A stretch of 64,000 nt of DNA, from contig JANSXA010000007.1 of NCBI GenBank assembly GCA_024743175.1, positions 124,001-188,000 of the forward strand, read 5' to 3'. The translations under genes and the position numbers were made by a program. The notes below the pieces were generated by a model. It was not told the origin of the DNA, did no database searches, and saw only the letters and a list, made by a program, of their open reading frames with translations. This document shows, piece by piece, positions 2,994-60,616 of this stretch (its first letter is position 1; the number at the start of each line of letters is the position of its first letter). The stretch is from Pseudomonadaceae bacterium (GTDB lineage Bacteria; Pseudomonadota; Gammaproteobacteria; Pseudomonadales; Azotimanducaceae).

Positions 2994-3614
2994 ATGCAGG
3001 AATATCAAACACTTATACAAGTCATCGCCCTGACCATGGGTGCCGCCTGGGCCAGTGGTATTAACCTTTACGCGACCATCGCGATCCTCGGTCTGGCCGG
3101 TAACAGTGGCTATATCGACCTGCCGGAAACACTGGCCGTGGTGCAGGACCCAATGGTCATCATCGCAGCCGGGTTCATGTATTGCGTGGAGTTTTTTGCA
3201 GACAAAACACCGGGCCTGGATACGGGCTGGGATGCCATTCATACGTTTATTCGAATACCTGCCGGGGCGATGCTGGCTGCCGGTGCTGTGGGGGACGTGA
3301 CCCCCGCACTGGCGGTTGCAGCAGGACTTGTCGGCGGTACGGTAACCGCTGCTACGCATGCCACCAAGGCGGGTACACGGGTGCTGATCAACACCTCGCC
3401 GGAACCATTCAGCAACTGGGGAGCCTCTCTAGCCGGCGACCTGGCCGTATTTGCTGGTCTCTGGGCAGCATTGAGCCATCCGGTACTGTTTCTGATTGCG
3501 TTTGTGCTGTTTCTTGGCTTGATGATATGGCTGTTGCCGAAGCTGATGCGAGGTATCGCGGCTGTGGGTCGTAAGGTCGGCAGCTGGTTCAAACCGGCGC
3601 CGGCATCAGGCTGA
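2994..3614 (+). CDS. DUF4126 family inner-membrane protein
   Basis: A 206-residue, highly hydrophobic protein with several predicted membrane segments (about 8-32, 52-68, 82-118, 138-180). The stretch THATKAGTRVLINTSPEPFSN is the hallmark of DUF4126, found in many proteobacteria with no assigned function. The ATG at 2994 follows AGGGAAAG at a good distance. It is divergent from the thiamine-receptor gene, with the riboswitch leader between them. No operon partner is evident: the next gene begins about 110 bases on and encodes a cell-wall enzyme. Family call is strong; the role is unknown. Confidence 0.85.
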   Translation: MQEYQTLIQVIALTMGAAWASGINLYATIAILGLAGNSGYIDLPETLAVVQDPMVIIAAGFMYCVEFFADKTPGLDTGWDAIHTFIRIPAGAMLAAGAVGDVTPALAVAAGLVGGTVTAATHATKAGTRVLINTSPEPFSNWGASLAGDLAVFAGLWAALSHPVLFLIAFVLFLGLMIWLLPKLMRGIAAVGRKVGSWFKPAPASG

Positions 3615-3722
3615 AGTGGCTAAAAGATTCATCACTTTTCCATAATCTCTTTTGTAAAAAAGAAACCGAGTTTGCTGGCACAGTGATAGGCTTGTCAGCA
3701 TGCTCACGGACACCCTCTGACC

Positions 3723-6026
3723 TTGGCCGCTCGAAAAAAGACAGTCAGCAAAAAAAACACCGCTAAGCCTGCCAGATCACGCTGGTTGAAACCCCTTCTT
3801 AAACTGGGTTTCTACAGCAGTCTGCTATTTGGGCTGGCGCTGGTGGGCTACCTGATTTACGTCGACCGGACCATCACCAAAACTTTTGAAGGTCGCCGCT
3901 GGTCGGTACCCGCACAGGTGTTTGCGCAGCCACTGGAACTCTATGCGGGCGCGCGTTTGAGCCGTGCAGAATTGACCATTGAACTGGAACGCCTCGGTTA
4001 TAAACGGCATGCCAACCTGCCACATCCCGGTACATTCAAATCGCCTGGCAACGAACTGCAGATTTATCTCCGCAGTTTCGCGTTCATGGAACGACACCGG
4101 GACGCACAACGTATTTCCGTGGCCTTTGCAGGCAAACGCATCACGCAAATCAGCGGTGAAAACGGCGCCATACCCCTTTTAAGATTAGACCCGGCAACAA
4201 TTGGCAGCTTCTTCCCCAGCCACGGCGAGGACCGCATCATTCTGTCGCCAGAACAGGTGCCGCCACTGTTATCTGAAGGCTTGAAAGCAGTTGAAGACCG
4301 CAACTTTGATCAACATGCCGGTTTCAGCATCCGTGGCATTATTCGCGCTTTAATGGTGAATTTGCGGGCTGGCGAGCGCCAACAAGGCGGCAGCACCTTA
4401 ACCCAGCAGCTGGTGAAAAGTTATTTTCTGGACAACCGGCGAACCATCGAGCGCAAGCTTAAAGAAGTTGCCATGGCAATTATTCTCGATGCCCGCTTTT
4501 CCAAGGAAGACCTGTTAACCGCTTACATCAACGAAATATTCCTCGGGCAAAACGGCAGTCGCGCGGTACATGGATTCGGCCTGGGTGCACAGTTCTACTT
4601 TAACAAACCGTTAGCCGAGCTTGAAAGTGATGAGATCGCAACGATGATTGCCATCATCCGCGGCCCTTCTTTCTACAATCCATTTCGCCACCCCGAACGC
4701 GCGCTTGAACGACGCAATCGTATTCTAGCTACCTTCGAAAATGATGGCTTGATAGATACAGAACAGCTTACCGTCGCGCTGGGTCAGCCACTGGGTGTTG
4801 TCGCCAGCCCAACCAGCGGCGGTGCTTATTATCCAGCGTTCATGGATCAGGTACGTACCGAGCTTAAAGATCATTACGATCCCGAGGCACTGTCCTCAGC
4901 GGGTCTGCGTATTTTCACCACCATAAAACCCCGTCAGCAGGAGGCAGTACAACGGACGGTCAGCCATACGCTGAATCAGATTGAAAGCGACCGCAACGTT
5001 GAAGCGGGCACCCTGCAGGCAGCGGCGGTAGTGGCAGACAGCCAGACCGGTGAGATACATGCGCTTGTGGGTGGGCGTAAAGGCCGGGTAGATGGATTTA
5101 ATCGCGCACTTAATGCGGAGCGATCAGTGGGCTCACTGATCAAACCGGTGATTTACCTCACCGCCATTGAGTCCGGCATGCACCTGGGCACCCTGATAAA
5201 AGACGAACCAATAACCATTCAACCCGAGTTCGGAGACGTCTGGGAGCCGAAGAATTTCAACGGCGAATACACCGGCGAGTTGCCAATGATCCGGGCACTG
5301 GCGGAATCGTCTAATCTGGCCACCGTTCATCTGGGTATGCAGGTCGGTCTGCCGCTTATCGCGCAGCGCTTCAAACATCTGATCGGCCATGAACCGAAAA
5401 ACAAGTACCCTTCCTTTCTGTTGGGTGCAGAGGCGCTGTCTCCACTGGCCATGCTTGAACTGTATGGGAACTTTGCCTCCGGCGGTTTTCGCACTCCGCC
5501 CAAAGCGGTTATCGCCGTGTTAGACGAACGTGGGCAGGCCTTGACCCATCACCCGTTTGAGCTGGAACAGACAATCGAATCCCGCCATGCCGCAACCATC
5601 AACCGAGCCCTGGAAATTGCCATGGCTAAAGGTACGGGCAGAACTTCGCCTTTTGCCCGACGTGGCGTTGCCGGCAAAACCGGCACCTCTAACGACAACC
5701 GCGACAGCTGGTTTGCGGGATTTGATAACAGTCATGTCTCTGTCGTATGGGTAGGTCGCGACGATAACGCGGTGACCGGGCTAACCGGCTCATCTGGCGC
5801 TCTGCGGGTATGGAACGGGATTGCCCGTCAGGACGGTATCGACCCGCTCACGCACGCACCGAGCGCAGAGCTGGTTGACATAGAATTCAGCAGCGGCTTA
5901 CGTGCAAACGCCGACTGTGCTGACGTGGTTAATGTGCCGATACCTGATTTTGAGAACCTGCAGACAAAGCCCGGTTGCCGCGTCAATTCCGGCAGCGGGT
6001 TGCGACGCTGGTTTGGCAGTCAATAA
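3723..6026 (+). CDS. mrcB: Penicillin-binding protein 1B (bifunctional peptidoglycan synthase)
   Basis: A 767-residue class A PBP that polymerises lipid II and cross-links the strands in the periplasm. Order: basic cytoplasmic tail, one membrane anchor (about 25-47), UB2H-like region (LpoB-binding in known PBP1B), GT51 transglycosylase with VEDRNF (Glu191) and GGSTLTQQLVKSYF, and transpeptidase with SLIK (Ser471 to Lys474), SSN and KTGT (652-655). All key residues are present. The best start is TTG at 3723; no strong ribosome-binding site is seen, so the start is uncertain. The last 57 bp recur at 11512-11568, and a diverged copy of the preceding 52 bp recurs with them, implying insertion of about 5.5 kb between this gene and its former neighbour, the TPR lipoprotein gene at 11585. 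Confidence 0.95.
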   Translation: MAARKKTVSKKNTAKPARSRWLKPLLKLGFYSSLLFGLALVGYLIYVDRTITKTFEGRRWSVPAQVFAQPLELYAGARLSRAELTIELERLGYKRHANLPHPGTFKSPGNELQIYLRSFAFMERHRDAQRISVAFAGKRITQISGENGAIPLLRLDPATIGSFFPSHGEDRIILSPEQVPPLLSEGLKAVEDRNFDQHAGFSIRGIIRALMVNLRAGERQQGGSTLTQQLVKSYFLDNRRTIERKLKEVAMAIILDARFSKEDLLTAYINEIFLGQNGSRAVHGFGLGAQFYFNKPLAELESDEIATMIAIIRGPSFYNPFRHPERALERRNRILATFENDGLIDTEQLTVALGQPLGVVASPTSGGAYYPAFMDQVRTELKDHYDPEALSSAGLRIFTTIKPRQQEAVQRTVSHTLNQIESDRNVEAGTLQAAAVVADSQTGEIHALVGGRKGRVDGFNRALNAERSVGSLIKPVIYLTAIESGMHLGTLIKDEPITIQPEFGDVWEPKNFNGEYTGELPMIRALAESSNLATVHLGMQVGLPLIAQRFKHLIGHEPKNKYPSFLLGAEALSPLAMLELYGNFASGGFRTPPKAVIAVLDERGQALTHHPFELEQTIESRHAATINRALEIAMAKGTGRTSPFARRGVAGKTGTSNDNRDSWFAGFDNSHVSVVWVGRDDNAVTGLTGSSGALRVWNGIARQDGIDPLTHAPSAELVDIEFSSGLRANADCADVVNVPIPDFENLQTKPGCRVNSGSGLRRWFGSQ

Positions 6027-8293: not shown

Positions 8294-8950
8294 CTATGCG
8301 TGCAGCTGATTGGGTTGCGGATCAGCAGCCAGTGTTTGCACCGCCTGTTTAAATTTTGCGTCTGAACGCACTCGACTGGCTCTTAACGCCGCCACTATGG
8401 AACCCACCAGCCACATCAACAGGCCGCCTATGGCGGCGCCAAAACCGCCGATAAACAGTGATTCGCCGAAGCCTTTGTCATCACTGAAAAAAGCCATCGA
8501 GAAGAACAGCAGACCCAGCAGCGCTACCACCAGCCCGCTGCTGAACCTGGGAAACATCACCTGACGCAGATATTTATTGTGGGTATAGGTGTTGCGGGTG
8601 TTGTGATTAAACACCTGGAAGTATTTTCCATATTCCGATTTGCCAGGGATCGCGAGGAAAAACGTCAAGTGCTGGCCTGGCTGGCAGGGTACGAGAAAAT
8701 CTACAGTTTGAATCAGATGCTCAATGCCCTCTTCATCGCGCAGGTAGATGTCCTGGTAGTTTGTGGTTGTTGAGGATATCGAGCCGGAAACCGGGGCGTT
8801 GTAGCCTGAGGTGCCGTAGCTGCCTCCACCACTGATTGAGCCGTTAACCTCAGTTTCGCTGCGGGTATCATTGCCGGCAACAATGCCGCTGCGACTTCGC
8901 ACCTCATAGGATATTCCCAGGGTTCTGTTGGCAGTGATCAGTTTAGACAT
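8294..8950 (-). CDS. Membrane protein with Gly/Ser-rich N-terminal region, unknown function
   Basis: A 218-residue protein. The N-terminal half is polar, with a low-complexity Gly/Ser/Thr stretch (about 35-65, VNGSISGGGSYGTSG) and a beta-rich segment (YLRDEEGIEHLIQTVDFLVP). Two membrane segments follow (about 140-156 and 165-190) and then a short basic tail. No signal peptide is present, so the N-terminal half is probably cytoplasmic. I know no family for it. It lies 45 bases upstream of the 594-residue membrane protein and 21 bases downstream of a lipoprotein gene, all on the minus strand, and is probably in one operon. Confidence 0.65.
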   Translation of the reverse strand: MSKLITANRTLGISYEVRSRSGIVAGNDTRSETEVNGSISGGGSYGTSGYNAPVSGSISSTTTNYQDIYLRDEEGIEHLIQTVDFLVPCQPGQHLTFFLAIPGKSEYGKYFQVFNHNTRNTYTHNKYLRQVMFPRFSSGLVVALLGLLFFSMAFFSDDKGFGESLFIGGFGAAIGGLLMWLVGSIVAALRASRVRSDAKFKQAVQTLAADPQPNQLHA

Positions 8951-8971
8951 TGGATTCTCCTGATGGTTGTT

Positions 8972-9259
8972 TCAGCTGGGTTGGGGCCTCAAGATCTGGC
9001 CCATGGGGCCAATCAGCATGTTGTCTTGTTTGGCCAGTACCACAGTGCCTTGCGGGCTGGTGACAATGATGTTGTTGCCGTGAGTGGTGTAGTCCGCTGC
9101 TACCGTGACTTCCAGCACGGTGATATAAACCTTGTCGTTGGCGCGGAAGTCGTAAGCAGTGGTGCCTAATTCATCTGTGTAAACACCGCTCAAGCCCTGA
9201 GAACAAGAGCTCAAACTCAAAAACGTGAGGAAAACTATGGCTTTTGCTGGAGCTTGCAT
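8972..9259 (-). CDS. Small lipoprotein, unknown function
   Basis: A 95-residue protein with a short hydrophobic leader and a lipobox-like LSSC at residues 16-19, so it is predicted to be lipid-anchored in the envelope. The mature part is beta-rich (GVYTDELGTTAYDF, VYITVLEVTVAADY, TSPQGTVVLAKQDN) and resembles small single-domain beta proteins that read as paired 'value/default' strands. It is first in the minus-strand three-gene set and divergent from the XRE/TPR regulator at 9399. No family assigned. Confidence 0.65.
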   Translation of the reverse strand: MQAPAKAIVFLTFLSLSSCSQGLSGVYTDELGTTAYDFRANDKVYITVLEVTVAADYTTHGNNIIVTSPQGTVVLAKQDNMLIGPMGQILRPQPS

Positions 9260-9322
9260 ATGGGCTGACCAGACAGATGATTCCGGCCCAGCATCATGTT
9301 CTGCTGGCTTATTTGCAGCTGC

Positions 9323-9379
9323 AGATAGCGTCAGATAGCGCTAGTTAGGTTGAAATAACGGCAAATCTGGTTAAATCTG
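9323..9379. promoter_or_regulatory. Two 10-bp-spaced direct repeats in divergent promoter region
   Basis: AGATAGCG occurs at 9323-9330 and 9333-9340, and AAATCTG at 9363-9369 and 9373-9379. Each pair has a 10-bp period, so both copies would lie on the same DNA face. They sit between the minus-strand lipoprotein start (9259) and the regulator start (9399). They are candidate binding sites for the HTH of that regulator or for polymerase-proximal control; the evidence is only their spacing and location. Confidence 0.3.
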
Positions 9380-53579: not shown

Positions 53580-54572
53580 ATGACCGAACTTGATCAATGG
53601 CTGTCACAAGTCAGCGAAGACATCATTGAACCGGAGAGGCCTATTGTAGATCCACACCACCATCTCTGGCATCAGCCAAACTGGACCTATGAACTGGACC
53701 AGCTTTGGAGCGACACGGACAGCGGTCACAACATCACACATACCGTATACCTGGAATGTGGTTCCAGCTATTTAAGTGAAGGACCCGAGCATCTGCGTTG
53801 CGTGGGAGAGACAAGCTATGTCGCTGCGATTGCAGAAGCTTCAAAACAGGATTCCGCACGCGCGACTATCGCCGCCATAGTCGCGCGGGCAGACCTGGAT
53901 GGCCCTCACCTCGACGAGGTTCTAGACGCTCACGAAAAAGCCGGAAAAGGACTGTTTCGCGGTATCCGCCATGCGGGCGCGCGGGACCCACACCCGGAAG
54001 ATCTCGCCATAGCCGGGCGCGCACCCGATGGCTTGTATCAGAAAGAAGCCTTCATCAAAGGTGTACAACGGCTTGGTGAACGTGGCCTCAGTTACGACAC
54101 CTGGCACTACCATCACCAGAATCAATCGTTCTGTGAACTGGCAAAAGCTGCACCGGAAACGCCAATGATACTGGACCACTTTGGCACACCGTTAGGTGTA
54201 GGCATTTATGCAGATCAGCGAGAAGCCATTTTCGAACAGTGGCAACAGGACATCGCTGATATTGCACAGTGCCCGAACGTGGTGGCGAAACTGGGCGGCC
54301 TGGCCATGCCAGACAACGGATTCGGCTGGAACCAGCGCGCCACGCCACCCACGTCGGATGAGTTTGTTGACGCCCAGGCACGCTACTACCATCACACCAT
54401 CAGCTGTTTTGGTGCTGATCGATGTATGTTTGAATCCAACTTTCCGGTTGATCGCCTGTCTATCAGCTACCACGTATTGTGGAACGGACTGAAAAAGATC
54501 GCCAGCAGTTATAGTGCAAGCGAGCAGGAATCAATGTTTCGGGGCACGGCAAAACGTATCTACAGGCTATGA
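53580..54572 (+). CDS. Amidohydrolase family protein (TIM-barrel hydrolase)
   Basis: A 330-residue enzyme of the Amidohydro_2 group: IVDPHHHLWHQPNW near the N-terminus supplies the first metal His pair, MILDHFGTPLGVGIYADQ the next, and RCMFESNFPVD the last Asp. Members hydrolyse lactones or decarboxylate acids; the substrate here is not clear. It starts behind GGGGAGAAACGC. It converges on the VIT/VWA gene, with 6 bp overlap of the stops. Confidence 0.85.
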   Translation: MTELDQWLSQVSEDIIEPERPIVDPHHHLWHQPNWTYELDQLWSDTDSGHNITHTVYLECGSSYLSEGPEHLRCVGETSYVAAIAEASKQDSARATIAAIVARADLDGPHLDEVLDAHEKAGKGLFRGIRHAGARDPHPEDLAIAGRAPDGLYQKEAFIKGVQRLGERGLSYDTWHYHHQNQSFCELAKAAPETPMILDHFGTPLGVGIYADQREAIFEQWQQDIADIAQCPNVVAKLGGLAMPDNGFGWNQRATPPTSDEFVDAQARYYHHTISCFGADRCMFESNFPVDRLSISYHVLWNGLKKIASSYSASEQESMFRGTAKRIYRL

Positions 54573-56651
54573 GACCGCCTTTTTGTAACGGCGCATGAAG
54601 TTGAATCCCCCTATCGCTAGCAGGGCTGCCAGCAGGCTGATCACCATGCCGGGTTCAGGTGCGCCATACCCGGTCATGGGTGCGGGAGAGTAAGCCAGCT
54701 GGGAAACTCCAGCAACTTTGGGTAACGCCACATCTCCGTCAGGGTTACGCTCGGGGTCAGCATTGTAAACACGCCGGGATACAGCAACAAACGAAGTCCA
54801 ACGGCTGGCCAGAGCATAACGCAATCCGAGATCAGTAACAGATATCTGCAACTGTTCATTGGTTTGTTTTTCGCTGCGCCGGGAACTGGGTGCAATAAAC
54901 TCATGCATCAGAGCAGCAAGTTTGGTCCGGGCCCAGACCCGACGCACCGCGGGTCGCTGAGCCGTATCTGACAGCTCAACGGATGTTTGCACCTGCGCCC
55001 GATGTTGCCGGCTGCGGCCAGCGATAGTTACGTTTCCCGATCCAGCCTGCGTGTATCGTCCCGTGACACGGATTGTGTCACCCAGATATAGATCCGGCAG
55101 TTTCGCGGGGACCAGCTCTGTTACCCGCAGATCTCCCCAATCGATTTCAAGGTCCGTCAGCACTGGTGTCTGCAACCGCTCAACCAGCTTGCTTACCACA
55201 CCATGCATGTGCTCAGCACTATTTGTCGGATCGAAATAGCGGGTGAATCCATGACCTACGCGACCAAGCTCATCCAGCAGATACCGATTCACACCCGTGC
55301 CAACGCCAAACGCGAACAAGCGTGCATCTCCACGCAGCTTTTCAACCAGGCCCAACACTGAATGTTCGTTGCCGATGTACCCATCTGTTAGAAAAACAAC
55401 GTTGCGGATACGCTCACCTTCAACCGGAACGGCGAGCGCCTGACGAATGCCGGATTTCATTTCGGTACCGCCGGAACCGCGTAAACGGCTGACATACTGC
55501 AGGCCATACGCCACATTCTCCGGGGTGGCTGGCATGGCTCTATTTGAAAACTCCGAGGCGGCGTCACTGAAACGAATGATTCGGAAACTGTCATCAGGGC
55601 GCAAAGACCGCAGAGCCTGACTCATGAAGCGTTTGCTGGCATCAAGGGGCAGGCCTTCCATGGAACCGGAGCAATCCAGCAGAAACACCATTTCCCTGGA
55701 CAGGACCTGATCCTGGGCAATCACCTCAGGCGGTTCGATCAGCAAACTGAAGTAGCCACCCTCCTCTGGTTGCCAGTGTGACAACAATCCCGCAGACGTT
55801 TCAACGCCGGCAAGCTGATAGCGCAAAACAAAGTCTTTGTTGTCCAGCACACGCCCCTGCTGCAGGGTTATATCCGCCTGAGTCGAAGAGACGTCACGAA
55901 TCGCCAGCGGATGGGTATCACTGTGCAGCGCATGTATTGTCGCTGGCGCTTCCAGATTTATCTGTATAGCGACGCGTTCTGAGGTAAACGTCGAGGGTAA
56001 ATCTATACCCGCTGTGGGCGGTGCATCAGGCAACTTCTCCAGAGTCCACTGCCCGGCATCAGGCGTAGCACCCGAGGTTCCAACGGGAAAAACCTCTGGT
56101 GCTACACCGGCCCCGGCAGGCTGATATCGCGGACCCACAACTAAAGGCACAACCAGTTCGTAAGCACCATCCACTTTCGGCACAATATGAGAATAGGCAA
56201 TTTCAATTTCAATTGATTGGCCCGGCATCAGATTCGCAACCCGTTGAGTAAACATGTTGGGTCTGTGCTGTTCCAGTAGAGCGGCAGACTTACCTGCGCT
56301 TTGTGCAGCCTTGAATGTTGCCTGTGCTGCCTTCTTCTCCTGAATCTGCGCAACAATGACCTCATCCCCGACCCGCAACGTCATTGCGTGAACTGCCGCA
56401 TTTTTCTGCAGAGGAAACAGATAGCGTGCGTTTAAAGGCTGCGTGAAATGATTATGGAATTGCTGCTTCAGCACCACATTCACCACATCACCGAAGACCT
56501 CTACCTGATAGTCGCTGTGCAACGCGCTCAACGCCACTTTCCTGGCTCCGCCAGGCGCCTCAAGGGTGCCTTCAACAGATCCCGCAATGTCGGCATACAC
56601 CGGCAGCGTGATATGTAGACACAGATAAAAACAGATCAGCCTGAAACTCAT
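54567..56651 (-). CDS. VIT/VWA surface protein with PEP-CTERM tail (exosortase target)
   Basis: A 694-residue protein with a signal peptide (about 1-20, ending VYA-D), a VIT domain (about 25-170, QQFHNHFTQPLNARYLFPLQ), a vWA domain with the MIDAS motif DCSGS (Asp326), and a PEP-CTERM-like sorting tail: PEP at 665-667, a hydrophobic stretch to 685 and RR at 687-688. Domain order matches the 'marine proteobacterial sortase target' family, whose members normally end in an LPXTG-like signal. Here the tail is of the exosortase type and the gene lies 10 bp downstream of an exosortase gene, so the exosortase is its likely processing enzyme. Role: probably metal-dependent adhesion at the cell surface. 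Confidence 0.88.
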   Translation of the reverse strand: MSFRLICFYLCLHITLPVYADIAGSVEGTLEAPGGARKVALSALHSDYQVEVFGDVVNVVLKQQFHNHFTQPLNARYLFPLQKNAAVHAMTLRVGDEVIVAQIQEKKAAQATFKAAQSAGKSAALLEQHRPNMFTQRVANLMPGQSIEIEIAYSHIVPKVDGAYELVVPLVVGPRYQPAGAGVAPEVFPVGTSGATPDAGQWTLEKLPDAPPTAGIDLPSTFTSERVAIQINLEAPATIHALHSDTHPLAIRDVSSTQADITLQQGRVLDNKDFVLRYQLAGVETSAGLLSHWQPEEGGYFSLLIEPPEVIAQDQVLSREMVFLLDCSGSMEGLPLDASKRFMSQALRSLRPDDSFRIIRFSDAASEFSNRAMPATPENVAYGLQYVSRLRGSGGTEMKSGIRQALAVPVEGERIRNVVFLTDGYIGNEHSVLGLVEKLRGDARLFAFGVGTGVNRYLLDELGRVGHGFTRYFDPTNSAEHMHGVVSKLVERLQTPVLTDLEIDWGDLRVTELVPAKLPDLYLGDTIRVTGRYTQAGSGNVTIAGRSRQHRAQVQTSVELSDTAQRPAVRRVWARTKLAALMHEFIAPSSRRSEKQTNEQLQISVTDLGLRYALASRWTSFVAVSRRVYNADPERNPDGDVALPKVAGVSQLAYSPAPMTGYGAPEPGMVISLLAALLAIGGFNFMRRYKKAVS

Positions 56652-56661
56652 GACTTGTTCC

Positions 56662-58179
56662 TTATAAAGTTACTGAATTAGCGGGTTGCAGAGACATCGA
56701 ACGGGAAATGACTGCTTCGAACTCAGCCACCTGGCCTGCGGTGATCGCTGCGTCCTCAGGTACGATCCGTTGCACCATGGTCCAGGTTTCACGCGGATTA
56801 CGAGCCCAGTGCCAGATCACCTCAGCGATACTGAGCGCCTGCTGTCCGGAAGCAGATCGATACGTGACGTTAACGATATAGCTCTGACTTTTTCTAACTG
56901 CATCGTTACTCTGCAGATCATTGGCAACTGCGCGATAAACGGTTGCACCCTGTGCATGGTCCACGCCCTGCAGTTGCACGTCGTATCCCATCGCGCGCAA
57001 ACAGATTGTTGGATCATGAAGATGGCGCAACGGCGACGCCGTGGAAACCAGCAACAGTCCAAATGGTCCATAACTGGCGCGTGCAGCGCTGCCGCCGTAG
57101 CGTGTGAAATAGCTGTTCTCTAAGGTGCTCAATGGTGCGCTGTTGCGTAAAAATCCAGCCGCAACCCGGGGCATTTCCGGGGGAGGAAGGGATGGGGATT
57201 TGTCCACGGGTTGCGGTTGGATCGCGCCAATTGACAGCGCGAAGACTAAAAACAGGAGAGCAAACACAGCAGGCCTGCGCGTCAGCAAGCGAGTAAAACA
57301 GGATTGTCTTGTGCATTGCTGTTCGGTCACGGGACAAAGACGCGCGAACACCACCACAACACCACTGGTCAGCGCGACCACAAAAACGCCCAGCAAAGTA
57401 TGCGGTAAAGGTGCCATGACGGAAAAACCCAGTATTTCCTGGTGTGCAATACCAGCAGCCAGCAGTGCGACACGTACCGCATTAAAAAGTAAAGCGCTGG
57501 ACAAAGACACAACCACACTGGCTGCACCCCACCTGAAAGCGGGGCGCACGAGGCTGTTAATCAGGCAGGTCACCAGCAAGGCGGTAGACAACAGTTGCGC
57601 GCCAGAACACGGCAGATCCACCATCACATCCCGGCCCGCAATCTGCAGCCGTACGCCTGAGCAGACAAGGTCATCGTAAAATGGACCAAGTAAAGTGCAG
57701 GCAATATCTGCAGACAACTGCTGCATGCCATAACCCAACAAACGCTGAACAATTGGCTCTATCGGCAGAGAGAAGCAGAACAATCCAGCCAGCCAGAAAG
57801 CGGATACCGCGCGTTGACGCAAAGGCAGGTGGCAAAGAGTCGCCAGAGCATACACATCCACAGCCAGCAGCAGGGCACCTACTACATTGACGTCGAGCAA
57901 TTGAGACAGCAGACGAATGACCGCAGTACCCAGTAATAAACCGTAAGTGCGGCCGACATCAGGCGCCTGAGTTGTTATTAGTGAACTCCCAGACCAGAGA
58001 GCCAACCCCAGCACCAGCAGGCAAGCGATCCATCCCACACCTTCGTAACCTGCGCTGTACCAGGTGCCTGTCAACCAGAGAAGGGGTTCATAAGCCAGCA
58101 CCATGGTACCGGCCAGGAGGGCCAGATTGGTCCAACAGAAGGTATAAGCTGGACGGACAATTCGATCTGCGATTAACAT
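56662..58179 (-). CDS. Exosortase with C-terminal EpsI-like region
   Basis: A 505-residue protein. The N-terminal 290 residues form a multi-span membrane domain with the exosortase catalytic triad: Cys191 in DLPCSGAQ, Arg236 in FNAVRVALL and His260 in PLPHTLLGV. The C-terminal 200 residues are soluble and contain HDPTICLRAMGYDV, like the EpsI proteins that accompany exosortases, here apparently in one chain. It would recognise PEP-CTERM tails, cleave them and attach the protein to an envelope partner. The next gene encodes a target with that tail, and the divergent two-component genes complete the locus. I cannot assign a catalogued Xrt subtype. Confidence 0.88.
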   Translation of the reverse strand: MLIADRIVRPAYTFCWTNLALLAGTMVLAYEPLLWLTGTWYSAGYEGVGWIACLLVLGLALWSGSSLITTQAPDVGRTYGLLLGTAVIRLLSQLLDVNVVGALLLAVDVYALATLCHLPLRQRAVSAFWLAGLFCFSLPIEPIVQRLLGYGMQQLSADIACTLLGPFYDDLVCSGVRLQIAGRDVMVDLPCSGAQLLSTALLVTCLINSLVRPAFRWGAASVVVSLSSALLFNAVRVALLAAGIAHQEILGFSVMAPLPHTLLGVFVVALTSGVVVVFARLCPVTEQQCTRQSCFTRLLTRRPAVFALLFLVFALSIGAIQPQPVDKSPSLPPPEMPRVAAGFLRNSAPLSTLENSYFTRYGGSAARASYGPFGLLLVSTASPLRHLHDPTICLRAMGYDVQLQGVDHAQGATVYRAVANDLQSNDAVRKSQSYIVNVTYRSASGQQALSIAEVIWHWARNPRETWTMVQRIVPEDAAITAGQVAEFEAVISRSMSLQPANSVTL

Positions 58180-58200
58180 GCAGACAGGATCGCAGACCCA

Positions 58201-58283
58201 TGTGCATAATCACCGTTGCTGGTGCGTCAAAATCACCCGTTTATGTGCAAAGTCCGCACAGATTTGTGCAAAAAATGTGCAAA
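58201..58283. promoter_or_regulatory. Phased TGTGCA repeats, candidate response-regulator sites
   Basis: TGTGCA occurs at 58201, 58244, 58265 and 58276; three of the four continue as TGTGCAA. The intervals are 43, 21 and 11 bp, close to whole helical turns. OmpR-family regulators bind direct repeats with 11-bp periods. The sites lie between the exosortase start (58179) and the regulator start (58332), so both operons could be controlled from here. Confidence 0.5.
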
Positions 58284-58331
58284 CGAATAATCCAGGTACT
58301 ACAGCCGCTAAAAGCCTGCGTACAATAGGGT

Positions 58332-59021
58332 ATGCAGACCATATTAGTTGTCGACGATGACCCTCATATCCGTGAAGTAGTTTGTTTTGCACTACAGCAG
58401 GCTGGCTATAACACACAAACTGCCAACGACGGGGTCGACGCGCTCGCCAAGCACGCCCGCCACAACCCTGATCTGATTATCCTTGATATTCTGATGCCGG
58501 AGCTTGATGGCTTGCAGGTTTGTCGCGCGCTGCGCGAGATATCACCGGTGCCGATCGTGCTGCTGTCTTCCAGAGACGAGGAAGTAGACAGAATTATGGG
58601 GCTGGAGATGGGTGCCGACGATTATGTGGGCAAACCTTTCAGTCCACGAGAGCTGGTCGCCCGGGTGAAAGCAAACCTCAGAAGAACCAACGAACTGGAT
58701 CATAGTGATGAGCATCATCACGTGATTACCTGTGGTGACTTTCATATAGATACCGAAACCTTCCAGGCCTCCTGGCAGCACACCGTGTTGAATCTGACGC
58801 AAACTGAGTTTGCGCTTCTACGCACCCTGGCTGGCCGGCCGGAAAAGGTATTCAGTCGCGACGCCCTGATGCAGGGGGCCTATGACATTCGTCGGGTGGT
58901 CAGTGGCCGGACCATCGACAGTCACATACGACGCTTACGCGAAAAGCTCACCGATGCCGGCGCACCGGGCATTGCTACCGTGCACGGTATTGGTTACCGC
59001 CTGCTGTATCAGAGCGTATGA
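58332..59021 (+). CDS. OmpR-family response regulator
   Basis: A 229-residue regulator: receiver with DDD near the N-terminus, phospho-acceptor Asp52 in IILDILMPE, Lys in GKPFSP, and a C-terminal winged helix (TEFALLRTLAGRPEKVFSRD, GRTIDSHIRRLREKL). It is paired with the kinase that follows (ATGA overlap) and divergent from the exosortase operon. By analogy with the dedicated sortase systems of marine proteobacteria, it probably controls the exosortase and target genes. Confidence 0.93.
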   Translation: MQTILVVDDDPHIREVVCFALQQAGYNTQTANDGVDALAKHARHNPDLIILDILMPELDGLQVCRALREISPVPIVLLSSRDEEVDRIMGLEMGADDYVGKPFSPRELVARVKANLRRTNELDHSDEHHHVITCGDFHIDTETFQASWQHTVLNLTQTEFALLRTLAGRPEKVFSRDALMQGAYDIRRVVSGRTIDSHIRRLREKLTDAGAPGIATVHGIGYRLLYQSV

Positions 59022-60616
59022 AACGTCAGTGGCCCACCATTTCACTGCGTAGCGTGCTGATCGGGGTGAATCTGGTGGTTCTGATTCTGCCATTGGCCGG
59101 CATTCAGCTGATGCGTTTATACGAAAGTGCTCTGGTGCGCCAGACCGAGTCTGCGCTGATCGCACAGGGCGCGTTTGTAGCTGCTTTGTACCGATCTATC
59201 GTGGCTGAGCAAGGTACACAGGACTGGCTGGCAATGAGCCGCGAAGTCAACCTCAGCGACGCACAGAAGGAAAACCGTTGGGTGCCCTATTTACCTTCAC
59301 TGGATCTGGCCACTTCAGATATTCTGCCGCCCTTTCCTGATGGTGTTGCGGGGGTTACACCCCGTCCGTTGATCAAAGAAATTCGCCAGCGGATGCTGCC
59401 GGTACTCAAAGATGCTCAGTTGGTGACCCTTGCCGGCATCCGGGTTGTCGATCCCTGGGGCACCATTGTGGCCAGCACTGGCACTGATGTCGGCGCAAAC
59501 ATCGCACAAACTGAGGAACTCGCCGGCGCCCTTTCAGGCAGGGCGATCAGTCGCCTGCGCAGTAAAAGCGAGCTGGTTGAAGTGTCCACACTCGATTCAA
59601 TCAGCCGCACAAGTACGGTCCGGGTTTTTGTAGCACAACCGATCATTCTGCACGGACGCCTGATCGGTGCTGTAGTGCTATCAAGAACACCACCCAATAT
59701 CGTACAGGCGCTGTATGCCAAGCGTTGGCTGTTGATGCAGGGTTTTGCCATGCTGCTGGCCCTGGTTGTGTTTATGTCCTGGGTGACCTTTCGCATGATC
59801 GCAAGGCCCGTTTCCAAACTGGCTGCGGAAGCCCAGGCTATTGCTGGTGGGGACATCAGCGCCAGCGATGCAAAGAAACGGCTGCAGAGACACGTCCCGC
59901 GCACTAAAGAAATTGCCAATCTCCATGCTGCCATTACCGATATGGCGGAGCGTCTGGAAGAACGAACGGCCTATCTGCGTGAATTCTCCCGTCATGTCTC
60001 ACACGAATTCAAAACACCACTGGCCAGCATCCGCGGCGCCATCGAAGTGCTGCAGGATCATGCAACAACCATGACAAATGACCAACAACAACGGTTTCTG
60101 ACTAATGTCAGAGCTGATGCTGACCGTCTGGCACGGCTAACCCAGCGATTGAGCGAACTGACTCACGCCGAAATGAGTGACCGCAAGCGCAGCCGTGTAT
60201 CACTGCACGGTACCGTCGCTGAAGTCTGCAGTCGCTTCACCAGCAAGGTATCTATTGACCTCAGCGCCGTTGATAGGGATCTCCAGGTCTGGGGTGATGC
60301 CGCCAGCATTGATGCCGGCCTGGAAACTCTGATTGAAAACGCCATCGCCCACGGCGCCAGCGATATCAAGTTATCAACCCATTGGGACAAACAGACAACA
60401 AAACTGTTCATCCAGGACAATGGCAGCGGTGTTACTCCAGCTAATCGCGGCAAAATCTTCACGCCGTTTTTCACCACCCGCCGCGAAACAGGCGGCACAG
60501 GCCTCGGTTTGAGTATCGCTCGCGCCTTGCTGCATCAGATAAACGCGGAACTGGACATCGTCAACGAGAATGGCCCAACAACCTTTGTCATTATTTTTCC
60601 TTCCCGGATAGACTAA
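59018..60616 (+). CDS. Sensor histidine kinase
   Basis: A 532-residue membrane kinase with two spans (about 9-28 and 236-255), a periplasmic sensor domain of about 200 residues between them, a HAMP domain (RPVSKLAAEAQAIAGGDISA), HisKA with SRHVSHEFKTPLAS (His329), N-box LETLIENAIAHG, and GTGLGLSIARALL. The ATG overlaps the regulator stop. The sensor domain is not recognised; presumably it detects an envelope or surface signal relevant to the VIT/VWA protein. Confidence 0.92.
   Translation: MKRQWPTISLRSVLIGVNLVVLILPLAGIQLMRLYESALVRQTESALIAQGAFVAALYRSIVAEQGTQDWLAMSREVNLSDAQKENRWVPYLPSLDLATSDILPPFPDGVAGVTPRPLIKEIRQRMLPVLKDAQLVTLAGIRVVDPWGTIVASTGTDVGANIAQTEELAGALSGRAISRLRSKSELVEVSTLDSISRTSTVRVFVAQPIILHGRLIGAVVLSRTPPNIVQALYAKRWLLMQGFAMLLALVVFMSWVTFRMIARPVSKLAAEAQAIAGGDISASDAKKRLQRHVPRTKEIANLHAAITDMAERLEERTAYLREFSRHVSHEFKTPLASIRGAIEVLQDHATTMTNDQQQRFLTNVRADADRLARLTQRLSELTHAEMSDRKRSRVSLHGTVAEVCSRFTSKVSIDLSAVDRDLQVWGDAASIDAGLETLIENAIAHGASDIKLSTHWDKQTTKLFIQDNGSGVTPANRGKIFTPFFTTRRETGGTGLGLSIARALLHQINAELDIVNENGPTTFVIIFPSRID

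What the first reader, a model, noticed from the sequence alone, without database searches (positions are those of the whole stretch)
54567..60616. Two-component-linked exosortase with a single VIT/VWA target: exosortase in place of the dedicated sortase
Seen: an exosortase (Cys191, Arg236, His260), a VIT/VWA protein 10 bp downstream with a PEP tail at 665-667, and a divergent OmpR-type regulator/kinase pair. Known: marine proteobacteria have 'dedicated single-target sortase' loci with a sortase, a VIT/VWA target with LPXTG-like tail and a two-component pair. Inference: here the processing enzyme and the sorting signal have been replaced together, while target and regulation are kept. I cannot rule out that it is an already catalogued exosortase subtype.
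Basis: partly seen in the sequence, partly recalled or inferred. Interest (0 to 1): 0.82.

Follow-up and report, generated by a model that had tools for sequence, protein, structure and literature searches.

The report
Exosortase with one dedicated, regulated target
This is a four-gene module in which a membrane enzyme (exosortase T) most likely processes a single adhesin-like protein encoded next to it, under a two-component switch that probably works through an unusual conserved DNA repeat; the enzyme type was already catalogued, but I found no description of the switch and its DNA site.

Summary
Observation confirmed; enzyme already catalogued: exosortase T (NF033770, 465.9 bits, cutoff 250), with Cys191, Arg236 and His260 invariant in 25 sequences. 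A VIT/VWA gene follows XrtT in 26 of 26 loci. VIT/VWA proteins with LPXTG, GlyGly or PEP tails were published in 2011.

"Target and regulation kept, enzyme replaced" is not supported. The two-component pair matches the sortase-linked models poorly (170 of 335.7, 108 of 612.2 bits); XrtT-linked targets, regulators and kinases group apart from nearly all sortase-linked ones. A deep sister relation is not excluded.

New: the same two-component clade accompanies a different, XrtQ-like exosortase with a different VIT target. Between regulator and operon lies YTGCAC-N5-YTGCAC, exact in 17 of 26 XrtT and 2 of 2 XrtQ-like loci (shuffle mean 0.002 of 28); 13 of those 17 have a third site 21 bp on. Of six exact pairs in the window's genome, only this one is outside long reading frames and has a third site. 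I infer a dedicated circuit.

The parts
56662..58179 (-). xrtT: exosortase T, exosortase domain (about residues 25-280; triad C191, R236, H260) fused to a C-terminal domain (about 345-475) with invariant R385, H386, H388, P390, C393
   Evidence: NF033770 465.9 bits vs cutoff 250; PF09721; invariant columns in 25 sequences; AlphaFold2 mean pLDDT 83.3
54567..56651 (-). the target: signal peptide-like N-terminus (by eye), VIT domain, VWA domain with intact MIDAS (D326-x-S328-x-S330, T396, D423; motif recalled), PEP tail 665-667, C-terminal helix, basic end
   Evidence: PF08487, PF13768; TIGR03788 473.5 bits, below its cutoff 551.65; alignment of 21; model matches inter-alpha-inhibitor heavy chain 1, TM-score 0.61/0.70
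58332..59021 (+). OmpR/CreB-type response regulator of the exosortase-linked clade
   Evidence: clade with 10 other XrtT-linked and 2 XrtQ-like-linked regulators, support 99/98
59018..60616 (+). sensor histidine kinase, 532 aa, same clade
   Evidence: clade with 10 other XrtT-linked kinases and 1 XrtQ-like-linked one, support 100/99
58245..58282 (-). predicted operator: TTGCAC-N5-TTGCAC-N15-TTGCAC, 49 bp before the regulator start and at -66 to -103 from the xrtT start

Best explanation
A dedicated sorting module. The kinase senses an unknown envelope signal and phosphorylates its regulator; the regulator binds the YTGCAC direct-repeat array (steps of 11 and then usually 21 bp, so on one face of the helix) and switches on the xrtT-target operon and perhaps its own. 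The target is exported, held in the inner membrane by its C-terminal helix, and XrtT cuts at or near the PEP motif through Cys191, releasing the ITIH-like VIT/VWA protein or moving it to an unknown acceptor at the cell surface. Shown here: gene linkage, conserved catalytic and MIDAS residues, conserved tail, the two-component clade, the conserved DNA array and its singular place in the genome. Inferred: binding of this regulator to the array, direction of regulation, cleavage, acceptor, adhesive role.
For: XrtT score and triad. VIT/VWA sequence directly 3' of XrtT in 26 of 26 loci, window plus 25 named. PEP tail in 20 of 22 complete C-termini. One PEP-CTERM over cutoff in the genome and one VIT protein. 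A pair of this two-component family next to xrtT or just after the target in 11 of 26 XrtT loci; in two more, its regulator (L058) or both genes (G068, same locus as L045) lie about 7 and 9 kb away. Same clade at the XrtQ-like loci: two regulators and one kinase on the trees. YTGCAC-N5-YTGCAC exact in 19 of 28 upstream regions (17 of 26 XrtT, 2 of 2 XrtQ-like), shuffle mean 0.002, operon strand only; 0 hits in 598,497 bases of 41 control loci (about 10 kb counted twice). Exact triple array at XrtT loci only among 233 loci held, 13 of 26 distinct ones. The layout equals the published CreB/BlrA tag TTCAC-N6-TTCAC, and CreB and CreC are among the best model matches of this pair.
Against: No binding, cleavage or expression data exist here. 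13 of 26 XrtT loci show no pair of this clade in the DNA held (many contigs end early; the 28.8-kb contig of G199, same locus as L050, lacks it), yet several of them keep the array, so the regulator there is assumed, not seen. Two loci (L040, L041) have no recognisable array and two (L046, L048) only one with two mismatches. The XrtQ-like loci lack the third site at 21 bp. L059's target has lost PE although its XrtT keeps the triad. A second exosortase is present in the window's genome and in the other six genomes tested, and G038 has two other PEP-CTERM hits over cutoff, so exclusive processing by XrtT rests on tails and linkage.
Confidence: 0.72

Rival explanations
1. One reading: a marine-type dedicated sortase system in which the sortase and the LPXTG-like signal were replaced together by exosortase and PEP, while target and two-component regulation were inherited.
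For: Same target family by TIGR03788 (473.5 bits); a divergent OmpR-type pair also in 13 of 20 sortase loci fetched; the regulator tree joins the two clades at 97/70; the genome keeps an orphan pair close to the sortase-linked one at C7 (TIGR03785 463.6, TIGR03787 244.7). AU does not reject XrtT plus sortase targets as one clade (p 0.071).
Against: Regulator and kinase are separate, well supported clades from nearly all sortase-linked ones (the sortase locus L161 has a CreB-like pair instead); sortase-linked kinases have 676-726 aa in 12 of 13 cases, XrtT-linked ones 532-572 aa in 9 of 11 (626 and 633 in two with uncertain starts); no array in the 20 sortase loci; targets form two separate clades; gene order differs.
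Confidence: 0.12
2. The YTGCAC array belongs to another transcription factor, and the linked two-component pair acts elsewhere.
For: The exact pair is kept at loci where no two-component pair is adjacent (L045, L047, L050, L054, L055, L057, L058, L060).
Against: The pair of repeats is found at XrtT loci and at the XrtQ-like loci that share the two-component clade with them; in the window's genome the other five exact pairs lie inside long reading frames, unlike a global site; in G068 both genes, and in L058 the regulator, are present 7-9 kb away.
Confidence: 0.13
3. XrtT is not dedicated: it processes further proteins whose tails are not recognised by TIGR02595 or PF07589.
For: Tails vary (PEA in L043, no PE in L059); PF07589 misses the target itself; the XrtE neighbour protein has a VPEL-type tail without a model match.
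Against: Exactly one over-cutoff PEP-CTERM in the genome, at the neighbouring gene; linkage 26 of 26.
Confidence: 0.15

Closest known systems
Exosortase T (NCBIfam NF033770)
   Same: Full-length match, nearly twice the cutoff
   Different: Nothing in sequence. I could not read NCBI's family text, so I do not know whether the VIT/VWA partner is noted there. No paper describing XrtT, its two-component pair or the array turned up (0 papers; 2; 25 of 193 shown; 12 of 77 shown; 10 of 428 shown); listings only.
Proteobacterial dedicated sortase system (TIGR03784, 03785, 03787, 03788)
   Same: VIT/VWA target next to its enzyme; divergent OmpR-type pair in 13 of 20 loci fetched
   Different: Exosortase instead of sortase, PEP instead of LPxTx-like tail, different two-component clade, different gene order, no array
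VIT/VWA protein with PEP-CTERM and exosortase in Verrucomicrobium spinosum (PMC3237569, 2011; passages and section 12 read)
   Same: VIT/VWA family with a PEP tail and a cognate exosortase; also GlyGly and LPXTG tails in the same family
   Different: The parts read give no two-component link or operator
CreBC two-component system and its TTCAC-N6-TTCAC tag (PMC4689548; passages read)
   Same: CreB and CreC models are among the best matches; box of two 5-bp half-sites 11 bp apart
   Different: Half-site TGCAC, mostly a third site 21 bp on; both CreB and CreC cutoffs missed; no creD-like gene seen beside it
XrtQ (NF012182) and XrtN/VIT (TIGR04476, TIGR04477) systems
   Same: Exosortase next to a VIT-domain target; the XrtQ-like loci of G301 and G159 share this two-component clade and the repeat pair
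   Different: Exosortase type, target architecture and a separate gene for the C-terminal domain differ

Membership tests
Exosortase T (NF033770) | score over the curated cutoff of 250 bits | tested here: met
   465.9 bits, positions 2-471 of 472
Exosortase T (NF033770) | Cys/Arg/His catalytic triad of exosortases (recalled, not from a call) | tested here: met
   C191, R236, H260 invariant in 25 of 25 aligned, L040 not aligned
Dedicated class GN sortase system | class GN sortase (TIGR03784) at the locus | tested here: not met
   The genome's only match is on contig C9, 84.5 bits vs 158.25
Dedicated class GN sortase system | target over TIGR03788 cutoff with LPxTx-like tail | tested here: not met
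   473.5 vs 551.65, PEP tail
Dedicated class GN sortase system | TIGR03787 regulator and TIGR03785 kinase | tested here: not met
   170.2 vs 335.7 and 107.7 vs 612.2, neither the top match; a real sortase-linked pair (L151) also misses both cutoffs, 239.7 and 529.8, but has them as top match
PEP-CTERM sorting domain (TIGR02595) | score over cutoff 16 at the C-terminus | tested here: inconclusive
   15.7 bits in hmmscan, 20.3 bits in the genome search; PEP in 20 of 22 complete C-termini
CreBC | curated cutoffs for CreB (273) and CreC (356) | tested here: not met
   234.6 and 158.7 bits
EpsI-like (PF11984; that this is EpsI is recalled) C-terminal domain of XrtT | match to PF11984 | tested here: inconclusive
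   1 of 25 members, E 0.0021; no PDB fold match at E<=0.001 for the whole model
Exosortase function | cleavage of the target tail | not testable with these tools
   needs experiment

The most novel reading that the evidence does not exclude
A two-component system with its own operator code (YTGCAC-N5-YTGCAC, mostly followed by N15-YTGCAC) is specific for exosortase/VIT pairs: it stays the same while the exosortase type (XrtT or XrtQ-like), the fusion state of its C-terminal domain and the architecture of the VIT target change. Regulation, not enzyme or target, would then be the constant core of this sorting module, and the array could be used to find unknown exosortase targets.
Probability: 0.55. 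Interest if true: 0.65.

Novelty: new variant of a known kind. Interest (0 to 1): 0.5.

Why it matters
Species with PEP-CTERM proteins often have twenty or more (passage in PMC3237569), which makes exosortase chemistry hard to assay. Here one enzyme seems to have one target with a recognisable soluble fold and a probable switch with a readable DNA site, so induction, cleavage site and acceptor could be tested in one strain. The array also offers a way to predict targets and inducing conditions, and it shows that sortase-linked and exosortase-linked VIT/VWA proteins mostly have different regulators.

Tried and rejected
Rejected: frame break of the exosortase in G159; the same two frames are separate in G301 as well. 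Rejected: viral contigs as a source (48 stretches matched a pattern, 0 relatives). No further conserved neighbour of XrtT: of the 12 largest clusters printed, judged by position, all were shadow frames over the known genes or shared by close relatives. Not fruitful: PDB fold search with XrtT (best E 0.28) and sequence search in PDB. Papers: no paper held has both 'exosortase' and 'XrtT'; 2 papers hold at least two of six XrtN/O/Q/VIT terms, neither shown to treat them (listing). Limits of counts: L040 has both XrtT and target in broken frames, and L060's target frame starts late; L037, L048 and L057 targets are cut by the contig end; these five still count in the 26 of 26. One search did not scan the 60 shorter loci L062-L121; one search did (triple array only). 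Upstream regions start from nominal start codons set by the tblastn match. Rows dropped: VIT tree leaves out L040, L057 and L129 as too short, and the XrtN-type VIT proteins of G159 and G301, which the VIT profile does not reach; regulator tree has 14 of 20 sortase loci fetched (L143, L144, L154, L155, L160 have no regulator of useful score near, L156's lies about 6 kb away); kinase tree has 13 of 20 and leaves out L188, whose kinase is in two frames. L058 and G068 regulators were judged by profile score (401.9 and 391.0), not put on the tree. Alignment A2 has 25 of 26 XrtT (L040 out), A3 has 21 of 26 targets (L040, L048, L054, L057, L061 out). L045, L050 and L059 are the same loci as those of G068, G199 and G038 and are counted once.

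Full report
What is there. The exosortase is exosortase T: NF033770 at 465.9 bits against a cutoff of 250, next best XrtO at 62. So it is a catalogued subtype. The two-component pair is best matched by BaeR (239.7), CreB (234.6) and CreC (158.7) models, all below their cutoffs, and matches the sortase-dedicated models poorly.

Distribution. In an even sample of 369 genomes of the same class, 4 have XrtT over the cutoff, the window's genome included, 47 have a class GN sortase over cutoff (56 at E 1e-10) and 50 a TIGR03788 target over cutoff. By my comparison of the lists, all 50 of the latter are among the 56; none of the other three XrtT genomes is, and the window's own match (84.5 bits) is far below the cutoff and not next to a VIT gene. 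With 4 XrtT genomes this separation is not statistically meaningful. The named genome collection gave 25 further XrtT loci, most titled as Gammaproteobacteria (Competibacteraceae, Methylococcales, Thiotrichales, Nevskiales and others), four as Alphaproteobacteria or their families.

The module. In all 26 loci (window plus 25) VIT/VWA coding sequence follows on the same strand, in some cut by the contig end or in a broken frame. 20 of 22 complete target C-termini have P-E-P before a final hydrophobic stretch. The catalytic triad is invariant in the 25 aligned, the MIDAS residues in the 21 targets aligned. The target's model matches inter-alpha-inhibitor heavy chain 1, and its profile matches PARP4 and ITIH chains. 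A pair of the same two-component family is next to xrtT or just after the target in 11 of 26 loci; in L058 its regulator and in G068 both genes lie 7-9 kb away. I saw no further conserved gene.

One target. TIGR02595 finds one PEP-CTERM protein in the 4.72-Mb genome, this one; PF08487 finds one VIT protein, this one. PF07589 does not reach the target and gives one sub-cutoff hit elsewhere; of the other XrtT genomes, G068 and G199 have no PF07589 hit over cutoff, G038 has two. Each of seven genomes tested has two exosortase matches. In the window's genome the second is an XrtE/protease type (TIGR04162 254.7 bits) beside a small VPEL-tailed protein, and the one sortase has an LPDTA-tailed neighbour. 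Each enzyme thus seems to have its own neighbour target; that is inference from linkage and tails.

Was a sortase replaced? Trees say that XrtT targets (24 rows, 100/100) and sortase targets (20 rows, 100/97) are separate groups, and that the one XrtQ target lies apart from both. Regulators of XrtT loci form a clade with those of two XrtQ-like loci (99/98), kinases with that of one XrtQ-like locus (100/99), apart from the sortase-linked ones; the pair of sortase locus L161 is CreB-like and belongs to neither group. The AU tests leave deep sister relations open. The genome also holds an orphan pair of the sortase type on contig C7 with neither sortase nor VIT gene in the 18 kb read. I conclude that VIT/VWA proteins were most likely taken up by several sorting enzymes with different regulators; the variety of tails was already noted in PMC3237569 (section 12).

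The shared switch. In G301 and G159 the same two-component clade stands before a different operon: a VIT protein of the XrtN type (TIGR04477 118 and 105 bits, cutoff 250) with a PEP tail, an XrtQ-like exosortase (147 and 139 bits, cutoff 270), and a separate gene matching the C-terminal domain of XrtT (34 bits each). So the regulator family is constant while enzyme type and target architecture differ. G311 has a true XrtQ beside a VIT/VWA PEP protein, but with a CreB-like pair of another clade and no repeat pair at the locus.

The operator. The 152-bp divergent region of the window holds TTGCAC-N5-TTGCAC-N15-TTGCAC (58245-58282). Across 28 upstream regions (26 XrtT, 2 XrtQ-like), 19 have the exact pair on the operon's strand, none on the other. 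The spacing scan (0-39) peaks at 5 (19 loci), 15/16 (15 and 5), 26 (13) and 37/38 (5 and 4); all other spacings give 0-2. 500 rounds of dinucleotide shuffles gave a mean of 0.002 loci and a maximum of 1. Of the other nine XrtT regions, five have the pair with one mismatch, two with two mismatches (weak evidence) and two none. 41 control loci, 598,497 bases with about 10 kb counted twice, including the 20 sortase loci, have no exact pair. In the window's genome the exact pair occurs six times, against two for the reversed control pattern; the other five lie inside long reading frames and lack a third site. The exact triple array occurs at XrtT loci only, 13 of 26 distinct ones, among 233 loci held; the XrtQ-like loci lack it. 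With one mismatch allowed the pair alone is not unusual in the window (5 found, 2.77 expected), so the claim rests on exact pairs, spacing and conservation. The layout matches the CreB/BlrA tag TTCAC-N6-TTCAC (PMC4689548, passages). By eye, the regulator's C-terminal region resembles CreB's. Binding itself is inference.

Verdict. Observation confirmed; enzyme known; the 'regulation kept' inference not supported; a conserved two-component and operator pair is the new part.

Noticed in passing
L035:1706-3349 (-) and 3426-3761 (-), genome contig C9: Second exosortase of the window's genome: XrtE fused to a CAAX-type protease (TIGR04162 254.7 bits), next to a 111-aa protein with a VPEL-type C-terminal tail that no NCBIfam model hits.
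   Followed up: partly
L036:7886-8626 (+) and 8757-9326 (+), genome contig C9: The only sortase match of this Gram-negative genome fits no class model over cutoff (class D 91.8, class GN 83.8 bits) and is followed by a 189-aa protein with an LPDTA tail (TIGR01167 17.4 bits, cutoff 15.9): a third small enzyme/target dyad.
   Followed up: partly
L190:6310-9287 (-), genome contig C7: Orphan regulator/kinase pair closest to the sortase-dedicated type (TIGR03787 244.7, TIGR03785 463.6 bits, both below cutoff) with no sortase or VIT gene in the 18 kb read.
   Followed up: partly
L128:5068-10226 (+), G311: XrtQ (319 bits) directly after a VIT/VWA protein with PEP tail, with a CreB-like pair upstream: an independent exosortase/VIT pairing.
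   Followed up: yes
L187:7075-13417, G301: XrtQ-like exosortase, separate C-terminal-domain gene, XrtN-type VIT PEP protein and the same two-component clade; the same genome also has a class GN sortase with its own VIT/VWA target (L143).
   Followed up: yes
L222:189-205, L227:1501-1517, L229:1501-1517 (G038); L215, L221 (G159): Further exact TGCAC pairs, some upstream of frames (weakly macroglobulin-like, SIMPL, weakly amidase-like, transglycosylase): possible small regulon in those genomes, without a third site.
   Followed up: no
L131-L138; L122, L123, L126: VIT/VWA proteins with Gly-rich tails that by eye resemble GlyGly-CTERM (L131-L138), and others ending in OmpA-like (L123) or AgmX-like (L126 over, L122 under cutoff) domains: the family's C-terminal anchors vary widely.
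   Followed up: partly
L059 (same locus as G038): An XrtT target that lost the PE of PEP (AAPAAGP) although its XrtT keeps the triad.
   Followed up: no
L051, L053, L056, L061: XrtT loci in records titled Alphaproteobacteria, Azospirillaceae and Devosia; in the target tree L061 groups with the window's clade and L051 and L056 with Methylococcales, suggesting transfer or misbinning.
   Followed up: no
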